Source: Rickettsiales bacterium
GTDB lineage: Bacteria > Pseudomonadota > Alphaproteobacteria > Rickettsiales > UBA3002
NCBI GenBank assembly: GCA_028281385.1
Contig: JANQJY010000049.1
Location: 1 to 64,000 of the forward strand
Length of the DNA stretch: 64,000 nucleotides
Direction of reading: 5' to 3'
Positions 40,483 through 55,108 of the stretch are shown one piece after another (within the stretch, counting starts at the first letter, position 1; each line of letters begins with the position of its first letter). The notes under the pieces were generated by a model. The model had not been told where the DNA came from. It saw nothing but the letters and a program-made list of their open reading frames with translations, and made no database searches. The position numbers and the translations under genes are program-made.

Positions 40483-41274
40483 TTAGAATCCGCCATTGAA
40501 GAAAATCGGGCACGCTCTAGCGTTTAAGTCCAAATTATAAAGTGACGTGACAGGGTCATTTGTGGTGGTGCAGTCGGGCGCAAGGATCCATCCCTGCTTT
40601 GGCGCGGTGACCTTGCCGGTGGCCGGATTGCCGTCATCAAGCTTGCTATCGATATTCCACGCTTCCTGAGGGGTTAAAATGTCCCGTACCGGCTCCGGGG
40701 GGCTATCGAAATCGCGGGTCAGTTCTATCAGGTGCCACTCACCCAGTGTGAACCAGCCAGGATGAGCGACCGTCATGTTTAACCAGGCGACATTAAAATG
40801 GGTATTTGCCAGTTTGCCGGCCAGTGCATTTTCACCGCCAATACGATTGTTATTGCCAGAGATTACGTGTGTGCCGGTATAGCTGCCTTCCACCAGCCCG
40901 GCATTGGCTAGATGCTGCCACAACCGGCCCCGTTCGTGGGGTCCGGTACCGGTGTATCCTTTGTGGATATCGCCATCTCCGTTGCCGTTGCAGGTTGGCT
41001 TGCCGGAGGATTCGCTTAAATAGCAGGTATCGTCATTCCCGGTGGTGCCTGCCTCAATACCCCAGAAATCGGTGGCATTGGGCATATCGCCGGGCAGGGC
41101 GAGATATCTATCGCGGAAGGTATGAATAGCAGTTTGGATTTGGGTAAGCTGGGTCGTCACACTACGTAATTCGGCAGCGCGTATGAGGTTTTGTCCTGTC
41201 AGAATGCCGCCTGTGAGCAGTCCCAGGATGACGAGCACAATGCTTAGCTCGACCAGTGAAAATCCATGATGCAT
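40483..41274 (-). CDS. Pseudopilin-like protein with prepilin signal
   Basis: A 263-residue protein with a class-III prepilin leader (GFSLVELSIVLVILGLL, cleavage expected before the Phe at residue 5, Glu at position +5), then a long N-terminal helix ending ALPGDMPNATDFWG, and a globular part with several cysteines. It belongs with type II secretion or type IV pilin-like proteins exported and processed by PilD. No other pilus or secretion genes adjoin it. A strong ribosome site, GAGGAGGG, lies 7 bases before the start and is inside a structured leader. A truncated paralogue lies at 35-136. Confidence 0.85.
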   Translation of the reverse strand: MHHGFSLVELSIVLVILGLLTGGILTGQNLIRAAELRSVTTQLTQIQTAIHTFRDRYLALPGDMPNATDFWGIEAGTTGNDDTCYLSESSGKPTCNGNGDGDIHKGYTGTGPHERGRLWQHLANAGLVEGSYTGTHVISGNNNRIGGENALAGKLANTHFNVAWLNMTVAHPGWFTLGEWHLIELTRDFDSPPEPVRDILTPQEAWNIDSKLDDGNPATGKVTAPKQGWILAPDCTTTNDPVTSLYNLDLNARACPIFFNGGF

Positions 41275-41280
41275 GGTAAA

Positions 41281-41430
41281 ACCCTCCTCGATAAATGGTG
41301 ATCGGGGAGTTCGAAAAACCCACTATAGGAAGGTTCCCGCTGGTCTTTAGGGCAAGCCTTGGACATGCACCAACGGCTCCCCGACCATACGAACAGTCGA
41401 GGAGTACGGATAACGGTGTACTAACCGCCT
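41281..41430 (-). ncRNA. Structured leader RNA upstream of pseudopilin (6S-like or cis-regulatory)
   Basis: In minus-strand sense, P1 (41404-41396, CTCCTCGAC) can pair with P2 (41386-41377, GGTCGGGGAG) or, perfectly over 8 bp, with the ribosome site of the pseudopilin gene (41291-41284). P2 can instead pair over 10 bp with P3 (41310-41301 region, CTCCCCGATC). Two further hairpins sit inside the P2-P3 stem. Mismatches are G-U only in this strand. With P1 closing on the ribosome site the shape is a rod with an internal bulge, and TGTTCG and CCTAAAG segments recall 6S RNA; the short 5' side of the central bulge argues against 6S. The 5' end is a guess. Confidence 0.5.
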
Positions 41431-41765
41431 ATAATGAGAGGTTTCGACGCCCCAAAATGACTCTTGTCATTTCAGGGGAAAGTGTAGCAAAAAAATGTAG
41501 ACGATACAAGCAGCCTTACGGTTGAAGAGGCAGGTTTGTTACTGCAGTAAACGACGGGTAGTGAGCAGAATACTGTTTCCAGGCTTTTTCATGCTTGTTG
41601 CATTGCGTCATAGTCTCGCGTTGCGAATTCGCGCCGCACCTAATCTAAGCTATTGTCTTATATATAAAAGAATGTTGCTGCATCTGCGAGGTGCAATTGC
41701 AGCATGCGCATGTTGCGCTGCCGTAAAAATGCCAGCTTTTACAAGGGCCTGCACCGGCTGCATGG

Positions 41766-49179: not shown

Positions 49180-49467
49180 ATGTCTAAGATTAATGACAAC
49201 ATGGCTCATGTCATCGAGCAGTGTATAGATAATGCACTTAAAAAACTTTTCTCTCATGATTTTGCATACCCGGAATACTTTGACACTAAACGGGCTGCTG
49301 CCTACCTCGGCTTGAGCAAGCAACGGTTGGAAATATGGCGAGTTTCTGGAGATGGCCCCCCATACACTAAACTAGCCCAAGCCGTTCGCTACAAACGTAG
49401 CGACCTCGATGTGTTTATGGCCAAGCACCTCCGTAACAACACAACTGAGGGAGGGGCCAATGTCTAG
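49180..49467 (+). CDS. AlpA/excisionase-like HTH protein
   Basis: A 95-residue protein with a MerR-like helix-turn-helix (about 38-90): FDTKRAAAYLGLSKQRLEIW, VSGDGPPYTKLAQAVRY, KRSDLDVFM. This is the AlpA/Xis-type domain that in P4-like elements controls excision or early transcription. Its 3' end overlaps the primase gene by 8 bp. The ribosome site is hidden in a hairpin. Confidence 0.85.
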   Translation: MSKINDNMAHVIEQCIDNALKKLFSHDFAYPEYFDTKRAAAYLGLSKQRLEIWRVSGDGPPYTKLAQAVRYKRSDLDVFMAKHLRNNTTEGGANV

Positions 49468-51676
49468 AGATATTATTGCCGATGCAAAAGCATACACCGA
49501 AGCCGGACTCTCTGTTTTTCCTCTACGAGAACGCAGTAAAGAACCGTTTGGCAAATGGAAAGAGTATGATGCTAAGGCCGATGATTACGGGAGCTTTAAT
49601 AGCGCTAGTAACATCGGCGTTAAATTAGGTGAGCCAAGTGGCGGCTTAATTGATATCGATTGTGACTGGGAGACTTTTAGTCTGCTGGCAAGTAAGTTTT
49701 TAGCACATTTGCCCAGTTTTGGTCGTGCATCCTCTCGCCACAGCCATCGTGTGTTTTTTGCCAATGAATCGGATAATTTTAAAACGGTGCAGTTAAAGCT
49801 CCCGTCTGTATGTAAAGATGACCCGCGGTTGCCTACCGAACACACTCTATGTGTGGCAGAATTTCGGGGGACAGGCGCTTACACCATGTTTCCGCGCTCG
49901 GTGCATCCTAACGGGGAAGAGCTAGCGTGGGAAACACCAGATGGTGCAATGCCGGAAATCCCCACTTTTGCATATGACGCTATTTTAAAGCATGTTCGTG
50001 TCTTGGCGTTTTTATCGGTTATACTGCAATGCTATCCGGGAAAAGGATCGCGTGATGAAATGCACTTTAAATTGGCTGGTGTTTTAGCGCGCGCAGGTGC
50101 CCCTTCCGATGAGATTGATCGCATTAACCTGACATTGGCTAAATTAGCGAAAGACGACGAAGCAGAAATGCGCGCTAAGGGACAAGATGCCGTTGCTCGC
50201 GTAAATGCGGGTGAGCCTGTGGCAAGTATGGCCTCGCTAATTGAAACGTTAGGCCTGCCTGATGCCTGCATCGCCTGCTTTAATGGCTGGCTTGGTATTT
50301 CGGGATCACATGACGATAAGGTGCGTGCACACCCCTCTATGCCATATCCTACTGCCGAACAATTTCGCCAAAGCAAATATCCCGATGCCATGCACCATAA
50401 CGGCAGTTATCTGGTCTATGATGGCGCAAGTTATCGGGAGTATGAGGATGATACCGTTAGGTCGACCCTGTATAAATATCTTGCGAAGGCCGTCTATGAG
50501 CATGACGGGGTCCTTGTACCGTACAATCCGAATGCAGCAAGGGTGAGTAATGTGATTGATTCGTTTAAAGGCATTATGCATCGCTCGACCGGATTATACC
50601 AGCCGCCATGCTGGCTCAAGAGCATGGAAGGTCTACCGCCTGCAAATGAGATCGTCGCCTGCCAGAATGGCTTGCTACATTTGCCTACAGGTGAATTGTT
50701 ACCGCCAACACCTAACTTTTTTACACGTAATGCGCTGGGATTTGATTATGACCCTGGTGCACCGCTACCAAAAAAGTTTAGAGCGTTTCTTGATGACATA
50801 TGGCCTAACGACAGCGATTCGATAGGCGTCTTGCAGGAAATGTTTGGTTATCTGCTGGTAGCAGATACATCGCAGCAGAAGATTTTTCTGATCGTTGGCC
50901 CCCCTAGATCGGGCAAAGGCACGTTAATTCGTGTTCTGACGAAACTTGTGGGCGAGCATAACACCGTGGCACCCAGTCTAAACTCGCTAAGTAGCGATTT
51001 TGGGATGCAAGGGCTGATCGGTAAGCTGATGGCAACGGTGAGCGATGTTCGCATTAGCAACAAAGCAAATGCCACAGCTATATCGGAAAATCTACTGCGC
51101 ATCTCCGGCGAAGATAAGGTCGAGGTAAATCGCAAATATAAGAACGCATGGGAGGGGTATCTGAAAGTGCGTTTTGTGATTATGACCAACGAAGTCCCAC
51201 AATTCGCCGATAACAGTGGTGCATTAGCCAAGCGGTTTGTACCGTTAGTGATGCGCCATAGCTTTTTCGGTAAAGAAAACCCAAACCTGACCAATGAGCT
51301 GCTTGAAGAATTGCCTGGAATCCTGAACTGGGCAATCGAGGGGTGGCGGCGATTAAATGAGCGTGGGCATTTTGTGGTGCCTGAGTCTGCCACTGAATTA
51401 GTCGATAGTTTGACGACACTGGCCTCGCCTATATCGGCATTTGTGGCTGAATGCTGCGAACAGGGAAGCGGCTATACTGTCCGAAAAGAGGCTTTATATG
51501 AGATTTGGTGTAAATGGTGTATAACAGAAGGCGATATGCGTCCCGGCACATCAGCCACCTTCGGTCGCAATTTGATGTCGCTGGGCGGTATCGACACCGA
51601 CCGCGAAACGGGTGGGGAAAGAAAGAACCTCTACACCGGCATTAAACTGAAGGATAATCCTTACGATGCGTCTTAA
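49460..51676 (+). CDS. P4-type primase-helicase (PrimPol + D5-like)
   Basis: A 738-residue replication protein. The N-terminal PrimPol domain (about 8-180) has AYTEAGLSVFPLRERSKEP and the catalytic LIDIDCDWE (about 72-80). The C-terminal part is the D5_N region plus SF3 helicase of the P4 alpha-protein type, with Walker A VGPPRSGKGTLIRVL (about 478-492), the B motif near TVSDVRIS, and the C motif VIMTNEVPQF. Start 49460 follows GGAGGGG. It should drive autonomous replication of the excised element from a nearby origin. Confidence 0.93.
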   Translation: MSRDIIADAKAYTEAGLSVFPLRERSKEPFGKWKEYDAKADDYGSFNSASNIGVKLGEPSGGLIDIDCDWETFSLLASKFLAHLPSFGRASSRHSHRVFFANESDNFKTVQLKLPSVCKDDPRLPTEHTLCVAEFRGTGAYTMFPRSVHPNGEELAWETPDGAMPEIPTFAYDAILKHVRVLAFLSVILQCYPGKGSRDEMHFKLAGVLARAGAPSDEIDRINLTLAKLAKDDEAEMRAKGQDAVARVNAGEPVASMASLIETLGLPDACIACFNGWLGISGSHDDKVRAHPSMPYPTAEQFRQSKYPDAMHHNGSYLVYDGASYREYEDDTVRSTLYKYLAKAVYEHDGVLVPYNPNAARVSNVIDSFKGIMHRSTGLYQPPCWLKSMEGLPPANEIVACQNGLLHLPTGELLPPTPNFFTRNALGFDYDPGAPLPKKFRAFLDDIWPNDSDSIGVLQEMFGYLLVADTSQQKIFLIVGPPRSGKGTLIRVLTKLVGEHNTVAPSLNSLSSDFGMQGLIGKLMATVSDVRISNKANATAISENLLRISGEDKVEVNRKYKNAWEGYLKVRFVIMTNEVPQFADNSGALAKRFVPLVMRHSFFGKENPNLTNELLEELPGILNWAIEGWRRLNERGHFVVPESATELVDSLTTLASPISAFVAECCEQGSGYTVRKEALYEIWCKWCITEGDMRPGTSATFGRNLMSLGGIDTDRETGGERKNLYTGIKLKDNPYDAS

Positions 51677-51683
51677 TTACCCG

Positions 51684-51787
51684 TCCTAGTTGTCTTGGTA
51701 AAATGCTTATTGTTTCGATTGCCAATTATGAATGTAATATTCGGTAAAAAGCGAGAGTAGAATAAGAAATTACCGGGACAACTAGGA
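51684..51787. repeat. 18-bp inverted repeat after the primase gene
   Basis: TCCTAGTTGTCTTGGTAA (51684-51701) and TTACCGGGACAACTAGGA (51770-51787) are complementary at 16 of 18 positions around a 68-bp spacer. It begins 8 bp after the primase stop. It may be a replication-origin or cis-repeat region element of the kind P4-type initiators bind. Confidence 0.6.
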
Positions 51788-51810
51788 CCCCTCCTTCTTG
51801 CAATTCCAAA

Positions 51811-51828
51811 GAATGTGATGAATGTGAT
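51811..51828 (+). repeat. Tandem GAATGTGAT 9-mers
   Basis: Two directly adjacent copies of GAATGTGAT lie in the 566-bp stretch after the primase gene, close to the large inverted repeat. They may be iteron-like sites for the primase-helicase. Further on (51840-51960) there are alternating CGCGCACGGGCGCGATG and CATCACGCGCGGGATG segments. Confidence 0.45.
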
Positions 51829-51918
51829 AATTTTCTTATCGCGCACGGGCGCGATGAGGCGATTTAGAATTGAAACGATTGAAATTTTTATCCTTATGCA
51901 TACGCGCATGTGAAGAAC

Positions 51919-52155
51919 ATGAAGATTTCTTCATCACGCGCGGGATGCACGTCTTGTTTTTTTCTACCATCCTGCCCACCCCCGCATCTTCGCGTTGACA
52001 CTCTCCGATATGAGCGTATCTTTCTAGCTAGAGCTATCGAAGGTAGCTTTGGGGCTTCAAACCTCATCTGGGCGGCTGACATCAGCCGTAATGATGTCGC
52101 CTTTTCGACCTTATGGCCGGGAGGCGACAATGTATGTCCAATGCCTCGCGGCTAA
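51919..52155 (+). CDS. Possible Ash-like small protein
   Basis: A 78-codon frame whose second half (FLARAIEGSFGASNLIWAA, then LWPGGDNVCPM) recalls the Ash/Icd-like small proteins of P4-type elements, which occur near the primase. The first half is unremarkable and the ribosome site is weak. A GTG at 51910 is an alternative start. It could instead be a leader region with overlapping short frames. Confidence 0.35.
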   Translation: MKISSSRAGCTSCFFLPSCPPPHLRVDTLRYERIFLARAIEGSFGASNLIWAADISRNDVAFSTLWPGGDNVCPMPRG

Positions 52156-52242
52156 AGATTGTCGCGATCATCCCAGATGATTTTGAACTCCCGGCTACCA
52201 GTCTTAGGGCTGGTGGTCGCTTGTTTAGATACGGAGAAAAGA

Positions 52243-53049
52243 ATGATCACGCTACAGGAAATACTGAATCTAAAAACTGACCGATTTCACAACGCTAAAG
52301 TAAAGCTAGTGCGACACAAAGACAGTCGCGCCGAATACCGCGATCTGATACGCAACAGGTCGGGACTCCTGGAATATCAACGAGAACAGGCCAAGGCGGT
52401 TTTTAAGGGGTGTAGCTACATTATCGCCTTTGTTGGGCTTGAGAGACGCCGCTCTGTCCTTTTCGGCGTGTTTTCTGTCGATGGCGTGACCCAACGCGAC
52501 GGTATGTATTATTATGACCTGACCCATCTGCCTGAATGCGCTGACCTTGAGAACCGCATCATAATTGATTGGGGTGGTAGTGCACAGGCATGGCACCAAT
52601 GGTATGATGCGCAATCGAAAGAGGTGGTTGAGATATTACCAGCGGGCTACCTCGGCAACTTTCCTGGGCTGCTGGATTTTGTGCTGGATTACGATGAATT
52701 GAAGCGGCTGATCGACAATCCCGAAGCGAACCATGATTGGAAGCATCACCTCTCTGCTGTTAACGGTATCTACCTGATCCTCGATACCCAAACCGGCATG
52801 CAGTATATCGGTTCTGCCAACGGTAAAGAAGGCATCTGGCAGCGCTGGGGCGAGTATGCAGCCAGCAAACATGGTGGCAATAAAGAGTTAATAGCATCGC
52901 TGGAGACTGACCCAAACTATCAGCGACACTTCCGCTATTCGATCCTGCAAACACTTCCCAGTAACATTACAAAAACCGAAATTGATAAGATCGAAAGCCT
53001 TTATAAAAAGAAATTTGGTTCCAAGGCACACGGGCTGAATAGGAATTAA
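52243..53049 (+). CDS. GIY-YIG nuclease-domain protein
   Basis: A 268-residue protein. The N-terminal 165 residues form a domain I do not recognise (ITLQEILNLKTDRFHNAKVK, YIIAFVGLERRRSVLFGVF). The C-terminal part is a GIY-YIG nuclease: GIYLILDTQTGMQYIGSANG (about 178-197), IWQRWGEYAA with the conserved Arg, and a Glu helix near KTEIDKIESLYKKKFG. Start 52243 follows GGAG by 7 bases. A remnant of a homologue lies just outside the element at 44776-44892. A role in defence or interference with competing phage DNA is plausible but inferred. Confidence 0.85.
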   Translation: MITLQEILNLKTDRFHNAKVKLVRHKDSRAEYRDLIRNRSGLLEYQREQAKAVFKGCSYIIAFVGLERRRSVLFGVFSVDGVTQRDGMYYYDLTHLPECADLENRIIIDWGGSAQAWHQWYDAQSKEVVEILPAGYLGNFPGLLDFVLDYDELKRLIDNPEANHDWKHHLSAVNGIYLILDTQTGMQYIGSANGKEGIWQRWGEYAASKHGGNKELIASLETDPNYQRHFRYSILQTLPSNITKTEIDKIESLYKKKFGSKAHGLNRN

Positions 53050-53069
53050 TAAGCTCTGGTAGAACTTAT

Positions 53070-53390
53070 TTAATAAGTGCCTGTAGCTTTGCGCGTATCT
53101 ATCTCTTCTGCAGCTATTTTAATTGCCTCATCAAAAACACTGTCTTCAATTGTATCGCCATCAAGTAGTGCATCAACAATTAAGCTCGCAAGTGATTCGC
53201 TTGTGATGGCTCGGTCATGGTCTAAAAAATAATCACCCGCAGCTTTACGCGCATTTATCTCTTCTGCAGCTATCTCAATAGCAAAACTAGCATCTTTGTT
53301 TTTCATCATATCAGCTTCTATAATTCTTTTAATTATCAAACTGGCCAGATTTTCGCTAGAAAGAGGCTTATTTTCTTGATCTTTACTCAT
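53070..53390 (-). CDS. Candidate immunity protein with two internal repeats
   Basis: A 106-residue acidic helical protein built from two copies of a repeat of about 42 residues: SENLASLIIKRIIEAD...IAAEEINARKAAGDY and SESLASLIVDALLDGD...IAAEEIDTRKATGTY. It is directly downstream of the MuF-type gene and overlaps it by 8 bp, the usual place of an immunity gene for a polymorphic toxin. No family recognised. The immunity role is inferred from position, size and charge. Confidence 0.6.
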   Translation of the reverse strand: MSKDQENKPLSSENLASLIIKRIIEADMMKNKDASFAIEIAAEEINARKAAGDYFLDHDRAITSESLASLIVDALLDGDTIEDSVFDEAIKIAAEEIDTRKATGTY

Positions 53391-54945
53391 AGTTCTTTCT
53401 CTGTTTTGGAAATTTTATTTTTCTATACGGCACGCCCTTAACATCTAGATCCACTGCGGGTTCTCCACTTTTTGATTTGGGGCGTTTGCCTACCCAATCA
53501 CCATTTGGCAAACGTTTTCCTTCACCTGGATAATTTTTAGGGGTATCTGGTTTGCCTCTTCCGAACTTGTCATATAGTTCGTCTGCTGCTTTCTGGCCAC
53601 CTTTTTCCTCTCGATATTCAGGACGCCTTCCCGGTCTTCCAATTGGTTTTCCACCCGGAATTATAACATCTTTTGGGTTTGGTGGTTTTCGGAAAATACT
53701 CCCCACTGCAACACCAATCCGCGCGATGCCTCCGACAACGATTCGTCCTAAGGCAGCGACACCGCCGATCAGTGCTTCCGGATAAACCGGTTCAGCGCGG
53801 CCAGATGGGTCGACCTCGCTCGGCAGGCGCGGTAGCTCTGTCAGTGGTTCAGCGTAACAGCGACAATTGAATTCTTCGCCCGGATGGCCGGTGGACGGCG
53901 GCTCATCCCACGCAAAAATTCTATCGTCATTCTCAGCATGACTGCCGCGGACTTTTTCATCATCCATCGACCGCCAGACATAATGCGTCACATCTGCTTC
54001 TCTTTGACGTATCTCACTCAGCTTACCGTTAAAGTGCAGCGCCAGCATTTCAACACGGTCGGGAATGGTCACATCCTGCCAAGTCTGTAACGCATCTTGC
54101 ATATGGTCCACTATTTGCTCACTGTTCCTACCTTGCCTGACGAGTTTATTTAGCTCTTTGTCGATAAATCTCCTTGTGCCGTTCTCGATGATATCAACCG
54201 CCAGATCGGTAAATGCATCGCTAGCTTCCGGCATGACTTCCGATTCGGAGACAATCGATTTATTCCCTAGTAACTGCCCTTGTATTTCGGCATTGATTTG
54301 CTGAATTTCCTCGGCGATGCGTCTGGCATTTTCTTTCAGAGGAAAGGCGATCTCGGGCAGCAGTTCTTCCGTCGTCATCTGGTCAAAACGCTGACGGATC
54401 GGTTGGACAATATAATCGGGCGTGTGAATGTCTGCTGTAGAGATGTTCAGGCTATTTAAAAGAGTTGCCTGCGCTTTTCGTCTGCGTTTGGCTTTATCGC
54501 GCAGCAATTCGTTATCCGTATCGGGAAGCGAGTTATGGAGAATTTCCCACAGCGCATCTTTCAGTTGCTGCTTTGCCAGTACGGTATCACCCTGGCGTTT
54601 TGCCTCAACATACGCATGTATATTGGCATAAAAATCGGTTGTTTCATCGACCAGCGCAGAATCTTCGTAATATAAAAACGCAATCGCCAATCGTTCATTG
54701 AGCAACAAATCATCCCAGATCGCGCCATACAACACCGTTTCTAGTTGGCCGTCATCGCTATCCAGTTCCTGTTTATACTGCTGCTTCTCAGTCGTTTTAG
54801 ACAAGTGCGTGCTGTGCGGCAGAAAACTGATGATTAGTTCATCACGCATCCGGTGGTAGGTTTGTATATCGTGTAATGATGTGCTGGGCTTAAGCTTGCG
54901 GGCCTCTGTCCGTAATTCCCGTATTTGTGTAACGTCATATCTCAT
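53383..54945 (-). CDS. MuF-type head protein with C-terminal toxin-like tail
   Basis: A 520-residue protein from ATG 54945. The middle part (about 290-370) is the phage Mu gpF / SPP1 gp7 minor-head domain, with VWRSMDDEKVRGSHAENDD and the signature HPGEEFNCRCYAEPL. After a Gly/Ala hydrophobic linker (about 395-420, VAALGRIVVGGIARIGVAVG) comes a basic tail of about 95 residues (PGRRPEYREEKGG, KRLPNGDWVGKRPKSKSG, VPYRKIKFPKQRKNYE). This layout is that of MuF polymorphic toxins. It is the only head-type gene in the element. The toxin activity is not identified; the partner gene follows with 8-bp overlap. Confidence 0.75.
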   Translation of the reverse strand: MRYDVTQIRELRTEARKLKPSTSLHDIQTYHRMRDELIISFLPHSTHLSKTTEKQQYKQELDSDDGQLETVLYGAIWDDLLLNERLAIAFLYYEDSALVDETTDFYANIHAYVEAKRQGDTVLAKQQLKDALWEILHNSLPDTDNELLRDKAKRRRKAQATLLNSLNISTADIHTPDYIVQPIRQRFDQMTTEELLPEIAFPLKENARRIAEEIQQINAEIQGQLLGNKSIVSESEVMPEASDAFTDLAVDIIENGTRRFIDKELNKLVRQGRNSEQIVDHMQDALQTWQDVTIPDRVEMLALHFNGKLSEIRQREADVTHYVWRSMDDEKVRGSHAENDDRIFAWDEPPSTGHPGEEFNCRCYAEPLTELPRLPSEVDPSGRAEPVYPEALIGGVAALGRIVVGGIARIGVAVGSIFRKPPNPKDVIIPGGKPIGRPGRRPEYREEKGGQKAADELYDKFGRGKPDTPKNYPGEGKRLPNGDWVGKRPKSKSGEPAVDLDVKGVPYRKIKFPKQRKNYE

Positions 54946-55031
54946 GAACGAGAGGATACATTGGAGTTGCAACGCTCGGAAGGGGCGGAATGTGACTTTT
55001 GGGGATTTTTATTAAAAGATACGCGTGAAGC

Positions 55032-55108
55032 TGGTGGTCCCGGCGGGATTCGAACCCACGGCTTCCAGATTAGGAATCTGGCACTCTATCCAGCTGAGTT
55101 ACGGGACC
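55032..55108 (-). tRNA. tRNA-Arg(CCT), intact, carried by the element
   Basis: A complete 77-nt tRNA: acceptor GGTCCCG/CGGGACC, D arm, anticodon stem CCAGA/TCTGG with loop TTCCTAA (anticodon CCT, reads AGG), T arm with GTTCGAATC, discriminator A and encoded CCA. It lies inside the element, about 108 bp from the right core. Its acceptor and T arm differ from the split host gene, but CAGATTCCTAATCTG of the anticodon stem-loop is identical. It probably restores the function lost when the element split the host gene. Confidence 0.97.

What the first reader, a model, noticed from the sequence alone, without database searches (positions are those of the whole stretch)
41281..41430. Pseudopilin leader RNA with mutually exclusive stems that can hide the ribosome site
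Seen: P1 (CTCCTCGAC) can pair with P2 (GTCGGGGAG) or with the ribosome site (TCGAGGAG), and P2 can pair with P3 (CTCCCCGATC). The non-Watson-Crick positions are G-U only in the pseudopilin sense strand, which argues for function in that RNA. This is the layout of a two-state translational switch. The same sequence also folds as a rod closed by P1 and the ribosome site, with TGTTCG and CCTAAAG segments recalling 6S RNA. Either way, a 6S-like RNA ending in the ribosome site of a pilin gene, or a new riboswitch-like leader, would be notable.
Basis: partly seen in the sequence, partly recalled or inferred. Interest (0 to 1): 0.78.

Follow-up and report, generated by a model that had tools for sequence, protein, structure and literature searches.

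The report
Unlisted pseudoknotted RNA switch before genes
The stretch before this pilin-like gene is one of at least 23 copies in its genome of a large, intricately knotted RNA that is absent from the public RNA catalogue and found across alphaproteobacteria, their plasmids and phages, and whose conserved strands look built to hide or expose the ribosome-docking site of the next gene.

Summary
From a promoter at 41481-41509, the pilin mRNA (minus strand) begins with a ~180-nt leader: hairpin HP0, hairpin H1 whose loop pairs with 3' sequence (PKa), long helix b, a second loop pseudoknot (PKc), the P1/P2 hairpin, hairpin C with an invariant internal loop (AUGUNCA/AAAG), then P3 and the ribosome site. 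It recurs 23 times in this genome and in 51 of 122 sampled genera of its order, elsewhere in Alphaproteobacteria, on plasmids and viral contigs, and in Acidobacteria. Covariation is very strong (96% paired; 1050 two-sided changes against 308 in shuffles). P1.P2, P2.P3 and P3.P4 each co-evolve although they exclude one another. P3 (CUCCC) is an anti-Shine-Dalgarno strand, and downstream genes are enriched for GGGAG/GGGG ribosome sites (40% against 8%). Best reading: a translational strand-exchange switch, an orphan riboswitch candidate; trigger and sign unknown. It is not 6S: the genome has its own 6S elsewhere, and no Rfam family matches. Downstream genes are eclectic: pilins, serine recombinases, TraM- and RovC/DUF2285-type regulators, phage cargo, small membrane proteins. 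No experiment was available.

The parts
41504..41509 (-). -35 hexamer TTGTAT (spacer 17)
   Evidence: in homologs, strong sigma70-like sites sit at a fixed place upstream (40 of 49 with the -10 end 26-30 nt before H1)
41481..41486 (-). -10 hexamer TACACT; predicted transcript start ~41474
41455..41472 (-). HP0, variable 5' hairpin AAATGAC/GTCATTT
   Evidence: within/between swap z -23
41438..41453 (-). H1 hairpin GGGG..CCTC
   Evidence: 4 of 4 pairs with two-sided changes
41442..41447 (-). PKa 5' strand TCGAAA in the H1 loop
   Evidence: 6 of 6 pairs with two-sided changes, 96% paired; swap z -22
41428..41437 (-). helix b 5' strand TCATTATAGG
   Evidence: swap z -38
41413..41428 (-). H2 hairpin GCGG..CCGT; loop 41418-41422 (AGTAC) pairs with 41403-41407 (GTACT), pseudoknot PKc
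   Evidence: swap z -11 (H2) and -18 (PKc)
41396..41404 (-). P1, anti-Shine-Dalgarno-like CTCCTCGAC
   Evidence: pairs P2, swap z -11
41377..41386 (-). P2, Shine-Dalgarno mimic GGTCGGGGAG; pairs P1 or P3
   Evidence: P2.P3 98.4% paired, 5 of 10 pairs with two-sided changes
41337..41376 (-). hairpin C with invariant internal loop AUGUNCA / AAAG, candidate sensing or tertiary-contact site
   Evidence: 8 of 8 outer pairs with two-sided changes; invariant loop letters
41330..41335 (-). d5 strand AACCTT, pairs GGTT just 3' of b3
   Evidence: swap z -10, 95% of sequences
41320..41329 (-). helix b 3' strand CCTATAGTGG
41311..41316 (-). PKa 3' strand TTTCGA
41296..41309 (-). P3 switching strand CTCCCCGATCACCA; pairs P2 or P4/ribosome site
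41283..41292 (-). P4 = ribosome-binding site ATCGAGGAGG
   Evidence: P3-downstream swap z -13.8
40483..41274 (-). type IV pilin-like (pseudopilin) gene under the leader
   Evidence: Pfam N_methyl, E 3e-5
52051..52200 (+). second copy of the RNA, in a prophage-like block
   Evidence: 67.2 bits with R1, 80.9 bits with R2
52243..53049 (+). GIY-YIG domain gene after the second copy

Best explanation
The element is the 5' leader of the pilin mRNA and a member of a widespread cis-regulatory RNA class that I find in no catalogue. SHOWN by comparison: a covarying multi-pseudoknot fold; a promoter at a fixed place just upstream; a position a median of about 50 nt before a start codon; three mutually exclusive, co-evolving pairings P1.P2, P2.P3 and P3.P4/ribosome site. 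INFERRED: the RNA switches by strand exchange. When the pseudoknotted core forms, PKa and helix b bring P3 to P2; P2.P3 forms and the ribosome site is free (ON). When it does not, P2 pairs P1, and P3 (CUCCC, an anti-Shine-Dalgarno) pairs the ribosome site or P4 next to it (OFF). A trigger that binds or stabilises the core, most likely at the invariant AUGUNCA/AAAG internal loop of hairpin C, sets the balance. The sign (folded = ON) is about 60:40. The trigger, whether a small molecule, an RNA, a protein or a physical cue, is unknown.
For: Covariation: 36 pairs, 107 sequences, 96.3% paired, 33 pairs with two-sided changes, 1050 such cells against 308 in shuffles and 98-191 in slid controls. P2.P3: 98.4% paired, 31 two-sided cells against 5.9. 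Swap test on 96 non-redundant copies: every helix including PKa, PKc, b, d, P1.P2 and P2.P3 pairs better within than between sequences, 0 of 2000 permutations. P3 with downstream 70 nt: z -13.8. Ribosome sites GGGAG/GGGG: 31 of 77 against 79 of 958 gene starts under one rule; given any Shine-Dalgarno 52% against 21%, p 2e-6. Promoter fixed 28 nt before H1. A start codon a median of 53 nt downstream in 252 of 261 unique copies. Copies: 23 in own genome, 87 of 263 genomes of the order, 48 of 385 of the class, 21 of 23 of one Rickettsia-like genus.
Against: No expression or probing data. The window's own P3.P4 is imperfect (-10.9 kcal/mol, one C.A). P2 and P3 cores are nearly invariant, so support for their exchange comes from flanking positions. 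Start codons were called by rule, not annotation. Downstream genes are too varied to name a ligand. The anti-Shine-Dalgarno enrichment cannot tell ON from OFF for the folded state.
Confidence: 0.72

Rival explanations
1. The same leader, but sensing a protein, a small RNA or a physical cue rather than a metabolite: a factor-gated leader, not a riboswitch.
For: Downstream genes are eclectic, unlike most metabolite riboswitches, and many lie on mobile elements.
Against: Invariant unpaired letters concentrate in one internal loop within an elaborate pseudoknotted fold, which resembles ligand aptamers; second-messenger riboswitches are also eclectic (own knowledge).
Confidence: 0.35
2. A mobile or selfish RNA element (MITE-like, or an attachment site for integrases) that happens to land before genes and carries a promoter.
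For: Many similar copies in one genome; some sit beside integrases (L008, L009, L016); some copies share ~100 nt of further non-coding DNA (L361, L366, L368).
Against: Copies are oriented and spaced relative to start codons, have matching ribosome sites, recur before the same small-protein families in distant orders, and preserve structure while primary sequence diverges.
Confidence: 0.1
3. A 6S-like RNA ending in the pilin ribosome site.
For: Superficial TGTTCG and CCTAAAG segments and a rod-like non-pseudoknotted fold of the + strand.
Against: No 6S match at any threshold; the genome has a canonical 6S on another contig, as do Rickettsia-like genomes that also carry this RNA.
Confidence: 0.01
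4. A constitutive structured standby or stability leader that boosts translation without switching.
For: Strong structure directly before the ribosome site, dedicated promoter.
Against: Three mutually exclusive pairings all co-evolve; a static leader would need only one.
Confidence: 0.12

Closest known systems
Translational riboswitches with an anti-Shine-Dalgarno strand (general logic)
   Same: 5' leader; competing helices; an anti-SD strand that is either sequestered or pairs the ribosome site; conserved unpaired core letters
   Different: No known aptamer: no Rfam match; several pseudoknots; ligand unknown; eclectic genes
c-di-GMP riboswitches (GEMM-I/II), as a regulon type
   Same: From own knowledge: many copies per genome before eclectic genes including pilins and phage genes; one copy here precedes a PAS-GGDEF gene
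   Different: No match to the Rfam models; only one GGDEF gene among 110 downstream proteins
6S RNA (RF00013)
   Same: Length and a few short letter strings
   Different: CM does not match; separate 6S gene present; pseudoknotted fold; co-directional ribosome-site linkage
sRNA-Xcc1 (RF02221)
   Same: Best sub-threshold Rfam hit on the element (21.2 bits, gathering score 53, E 0.49), aligned over P2 to P3
   Different: Far below threshold; 88 nt; reported as an intergenic sRNA of Xanthomonas (PMC2996969)
R. conorii Rc_sR3/Rc_sR33 repeated leader-like RNAs (PMC5105140)
   Same: Two near-identical transcribed RNAs in Rickettsia, one called a riboswitch, ligand unknown
   Different: Could not be matched: no copy at the corresponding places in a genome of similar size, but R. 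conorii itself could not be searched

Membership tests
6S RNA | Scores above the Rfam RF00013 gathering threshold | tested here: not met
   No hit
6S RNA | Only candidate 6S in its genome | tested here: not met
   True 6S at C86:3203-3362, 64.7 bits
Any Rfam 15 family | Match at gathering score | tested here: not met
   Window plus 15 other members; also none on the element at E<=1 in five members
Riboswitch | Conserved covarying structure in a 5' leader upstream of a start codon | tested here: met
Riboswitch | Alternative pairing that can mask the ribosome site or a terminator | tested here: met
   P3 with ribosome site/P4, swap z -13.8; SD enrichment
Riboswitch | Direct, specific binding of a metabolite or ion | not testable with these tools
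   Needs in-line probing; no ligand inferred
Rho-independent transcription-attenuation leader | Terminator hairpin with U-run before the gene | tested here: not met
   None between P3 and the start codon in the window; other copies were only read by eye
MITE / mobile repeat | Target-site duplications, empty sites | not tested
   Not searched

The most novel reading that the evidence does not exclude
A large orphan riboswitch class, so far unlisted, that spread through Alphaproteobacteria with phages, plasmids and integrative elements and gives a chromosomal regulon (here pilins) and mobile-element cargo, recombinases and conjugation anti-activators one shared signal-controlled translation switch.
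Probability: 0.5. Interest if true: 0.92.

Novelty: new variant of a known kind. Interest (0 to 1): 0.86.

Why it matters
An RNA of this size and complexity, with up to 23 copies per genome, in genera such as Rickettsia (identified from contig lengths) and Agrobacterium including a Ti plasmid, is missing from Rfam and from the discovery surveys I could read. It points to an unknown signal that coordinates surface proteins, recombinases and conjugation regulators, and it makes the ligand question directly testable with short in-vitro RNAs.

Tried and rejected
6S assignment. sRNA-Xcc1 link: sub-threshold, chance-level hit. tmRNA or tRNA-like 3' ACCA end: considered by eye because of GATCACCA, dropped because ACCA belongs to the P3.P4 hairpin and varies in some copies. 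attC / integron recombination site: same four-arm layout considered, dropped for lack of recombination core sites and because the arms covary with ribosome sites. Matching to R. conorii Rc_sR3/33/28/30 (PMC5105140): no copy at the corresponding coordinates of the 1.27-Mb genome G072, R. conorii itself not available, so undecided. Phage GenBank records by blastn: none, although viral contigs hold it. Naming the ligand from downstream genes: no dominant function. Literature searches gave no description of the motif; subscription papers and preprints were not searchable.

Full report
What was checked. P1 can pair P2 (-17.2 kcal/mol) or the ribosome site (-14.7); P2 can pair P3 (-21.3); P3 can also pair the ribosome site (-10.9). 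The leader folds better than all shuffles, z -3.4. Rfam shows nothing at the gathering score in the window except a tRNA, and only noise on the element. The genome's 6S is elsewhere, so the 6S reading is refuted.

The element is multi-copy. A DNA search with the leader found 14 places in the window's own genome and matches in 10 relatives, one of which (L012) proved to be a chance match inside a coding gene. The model R2 raises the count to 23 in the genome, two of them in the window: 41296-41453 (-) and 52051-52200 (+). The genome also has at least 29 pilin-like paralogs, and many copies precede them, but others precede 36-aa membrane peptides and other genes, and in relatives serine recombinases.

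Anatomy. Alignment of the copies shows a fixed order: variable hairpin HP0; hairpin H1 whose loop UNNNAA pairs UUNNNA just before P3 (PKa); helix b; hairpin H2 whose loop pairs the stretch before P1 (PKc); P1/P2; hairpin C with invariant AUGUNCA and AAAG; short stem d around b3; PKa 3' strand; P3; then P4 or the ribosome site. PKa, PKc and d/b are pseudoknots.

Is it more than chance? On 107 sequences the non-exclusive helices are 96.3% paired, 33 of 36 pairs show two-sided changes, and there are 1050 two-sided cells against 308 in shuffles and 98-191 when partners are slid. Because those counts depend on the alignment, I also used a test that depends on it less: pair each sequence's 5' strand with its own and with other sequences' 3' strands. 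Own pairing is better for every helix in 96 copies that share less than 80% identity: b z -38, C -30, PKa -22, PKc -18, P2.P3 -12, P1.P2 -11, H2 -11, d -10, H1 -9; no permutation of 2000 reached the observed mean. HP0 gives z -23.

The switch. P1.P2, P2.P3 and P3.P4 cannot coexist on the same strands, yet each co-evolves: P2.P3 is 98.4% paired with five of ten pairs changing on both sides, and P3 with the 70 nt downstream gives z -13.8. By eye, GATCACCA is followed by TGGTGATC in several copies, GACTACCA by TGGTAGTC in L009 and AACCACCA by TGGTGGTT in L087. P3 begins CUCCC, an anti-Shine-Dalgarno, and the genes behind the RNA use GGGAG or GGGG ribosome sites in 31 of 77 cases against 79 of 958 other gene starts in the same DNA under the same rule; among starts with any Shine-Dalgarno, 52% against 21%, odds ratio 4.0, p 2e-6 (one search had a less strict background). 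I read this as translational strand exchange. Which state is ON is inferred, not shown.

Transcription. Sigma70-like sites (score 9 or more in a 12-letter match with a half-point spacing bonus) occur upstream in 28% of copies against 2% of distal control DNA, and 40 of 49 have their -10 end 26-30 nt before H1. So the RNA probably starts at HP0; in the window the weaker site TTGTAT-17-TACACT gives a start near 41474.

Spread. Order: 87 of 263 genomes, 51 of 122 genera. Class: 48 of 385 genomes. Phylum: 23 of 349 genomes, eight outside the class. A degenerate pattern found it in 28 viral contigs, 27 strongly confirmed, and in more than 116 named genome stretches, nearly all confirmed, including Rhizobium, Agrobacterium vitis and its plasmid pTiCG78, Microvirga, Methylobacterium, Paracoccus, and Acidobacteria such as Granulicella and Terriglobus. 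Plasmids of Bosea, Paracoccus, Ketogulonicigenium and Shinella carry it.

Genes behind it. 252 of 261 unique copies have an ORF start, median 53 nt away. The proteins are eclectic: resolvase-domain-like proteins in Rickettsiaceae-like genomes (28; profile link to serine recombinases 74% probability), a small membrane protein family in Rhizobiales (18), 59-aa coils (14), pilins (10), RovC/DUF2285-type regulators (5), outer-membrane proteins, XRE regulators, TraM, GGDEF, phage GtrB- and Sie-like proteins, and mostly unknowns. Two small-protein families recur behind the RNA in different orders (one link strong, one weak), which argues for a functional link rather than chance landing.

Limits. Everything is comparative. 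The trigger is unknown; 'riboswitch' is a working label. The model was trained on copies from the window's relatives, so distant members are under-counted. Literature access was partial.

Noticed in passing
49409-55108: Prophage-like block: phage primase (49409-51676), head-morphogenesis protein (53383-54972), tRNA-Arg at 55032-55108; it holds the second RNA copy at 52051-52200 before a GIY-YIG protein.
   Followed up: partly
own genome, L361, L366, L368: Three copies of the RNA share about 100 nt of further non-coding DNA past P4 (CGGGAGGGGACGTGAATAGAAGACTCAC and variants), a larger dispersed repeat.
   Followed up: no
own genome (G000), whole: At least 29 pilin-like paralogs of this one pseudopilin in a 2.15-Mb genome, with similar expansions in relatives.
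   Followed up: no
L008/L079 (G008:C2), L016, L009: Copies next to integrase-like genes; in L008 the 3' end (P3) is replaced by other sequence near the contig end, possibly an integration point or an assembly break.
   Followed up: no
L283, L332 (Bosea plasmids): The RNA lies upstream of quorum-sensing genes: a TraM-like anti-activator (L283) and acyl-homoserine-lactone synthases.
   Followed up: partly
L084, L101, L088, L103 and others (Rickettsiaceae-like genomes): A family of ~140-aa proteins behind the RNA looks like serine-recombinase N-terminal domains without the rest of the enzyme.
   Followed up: partly
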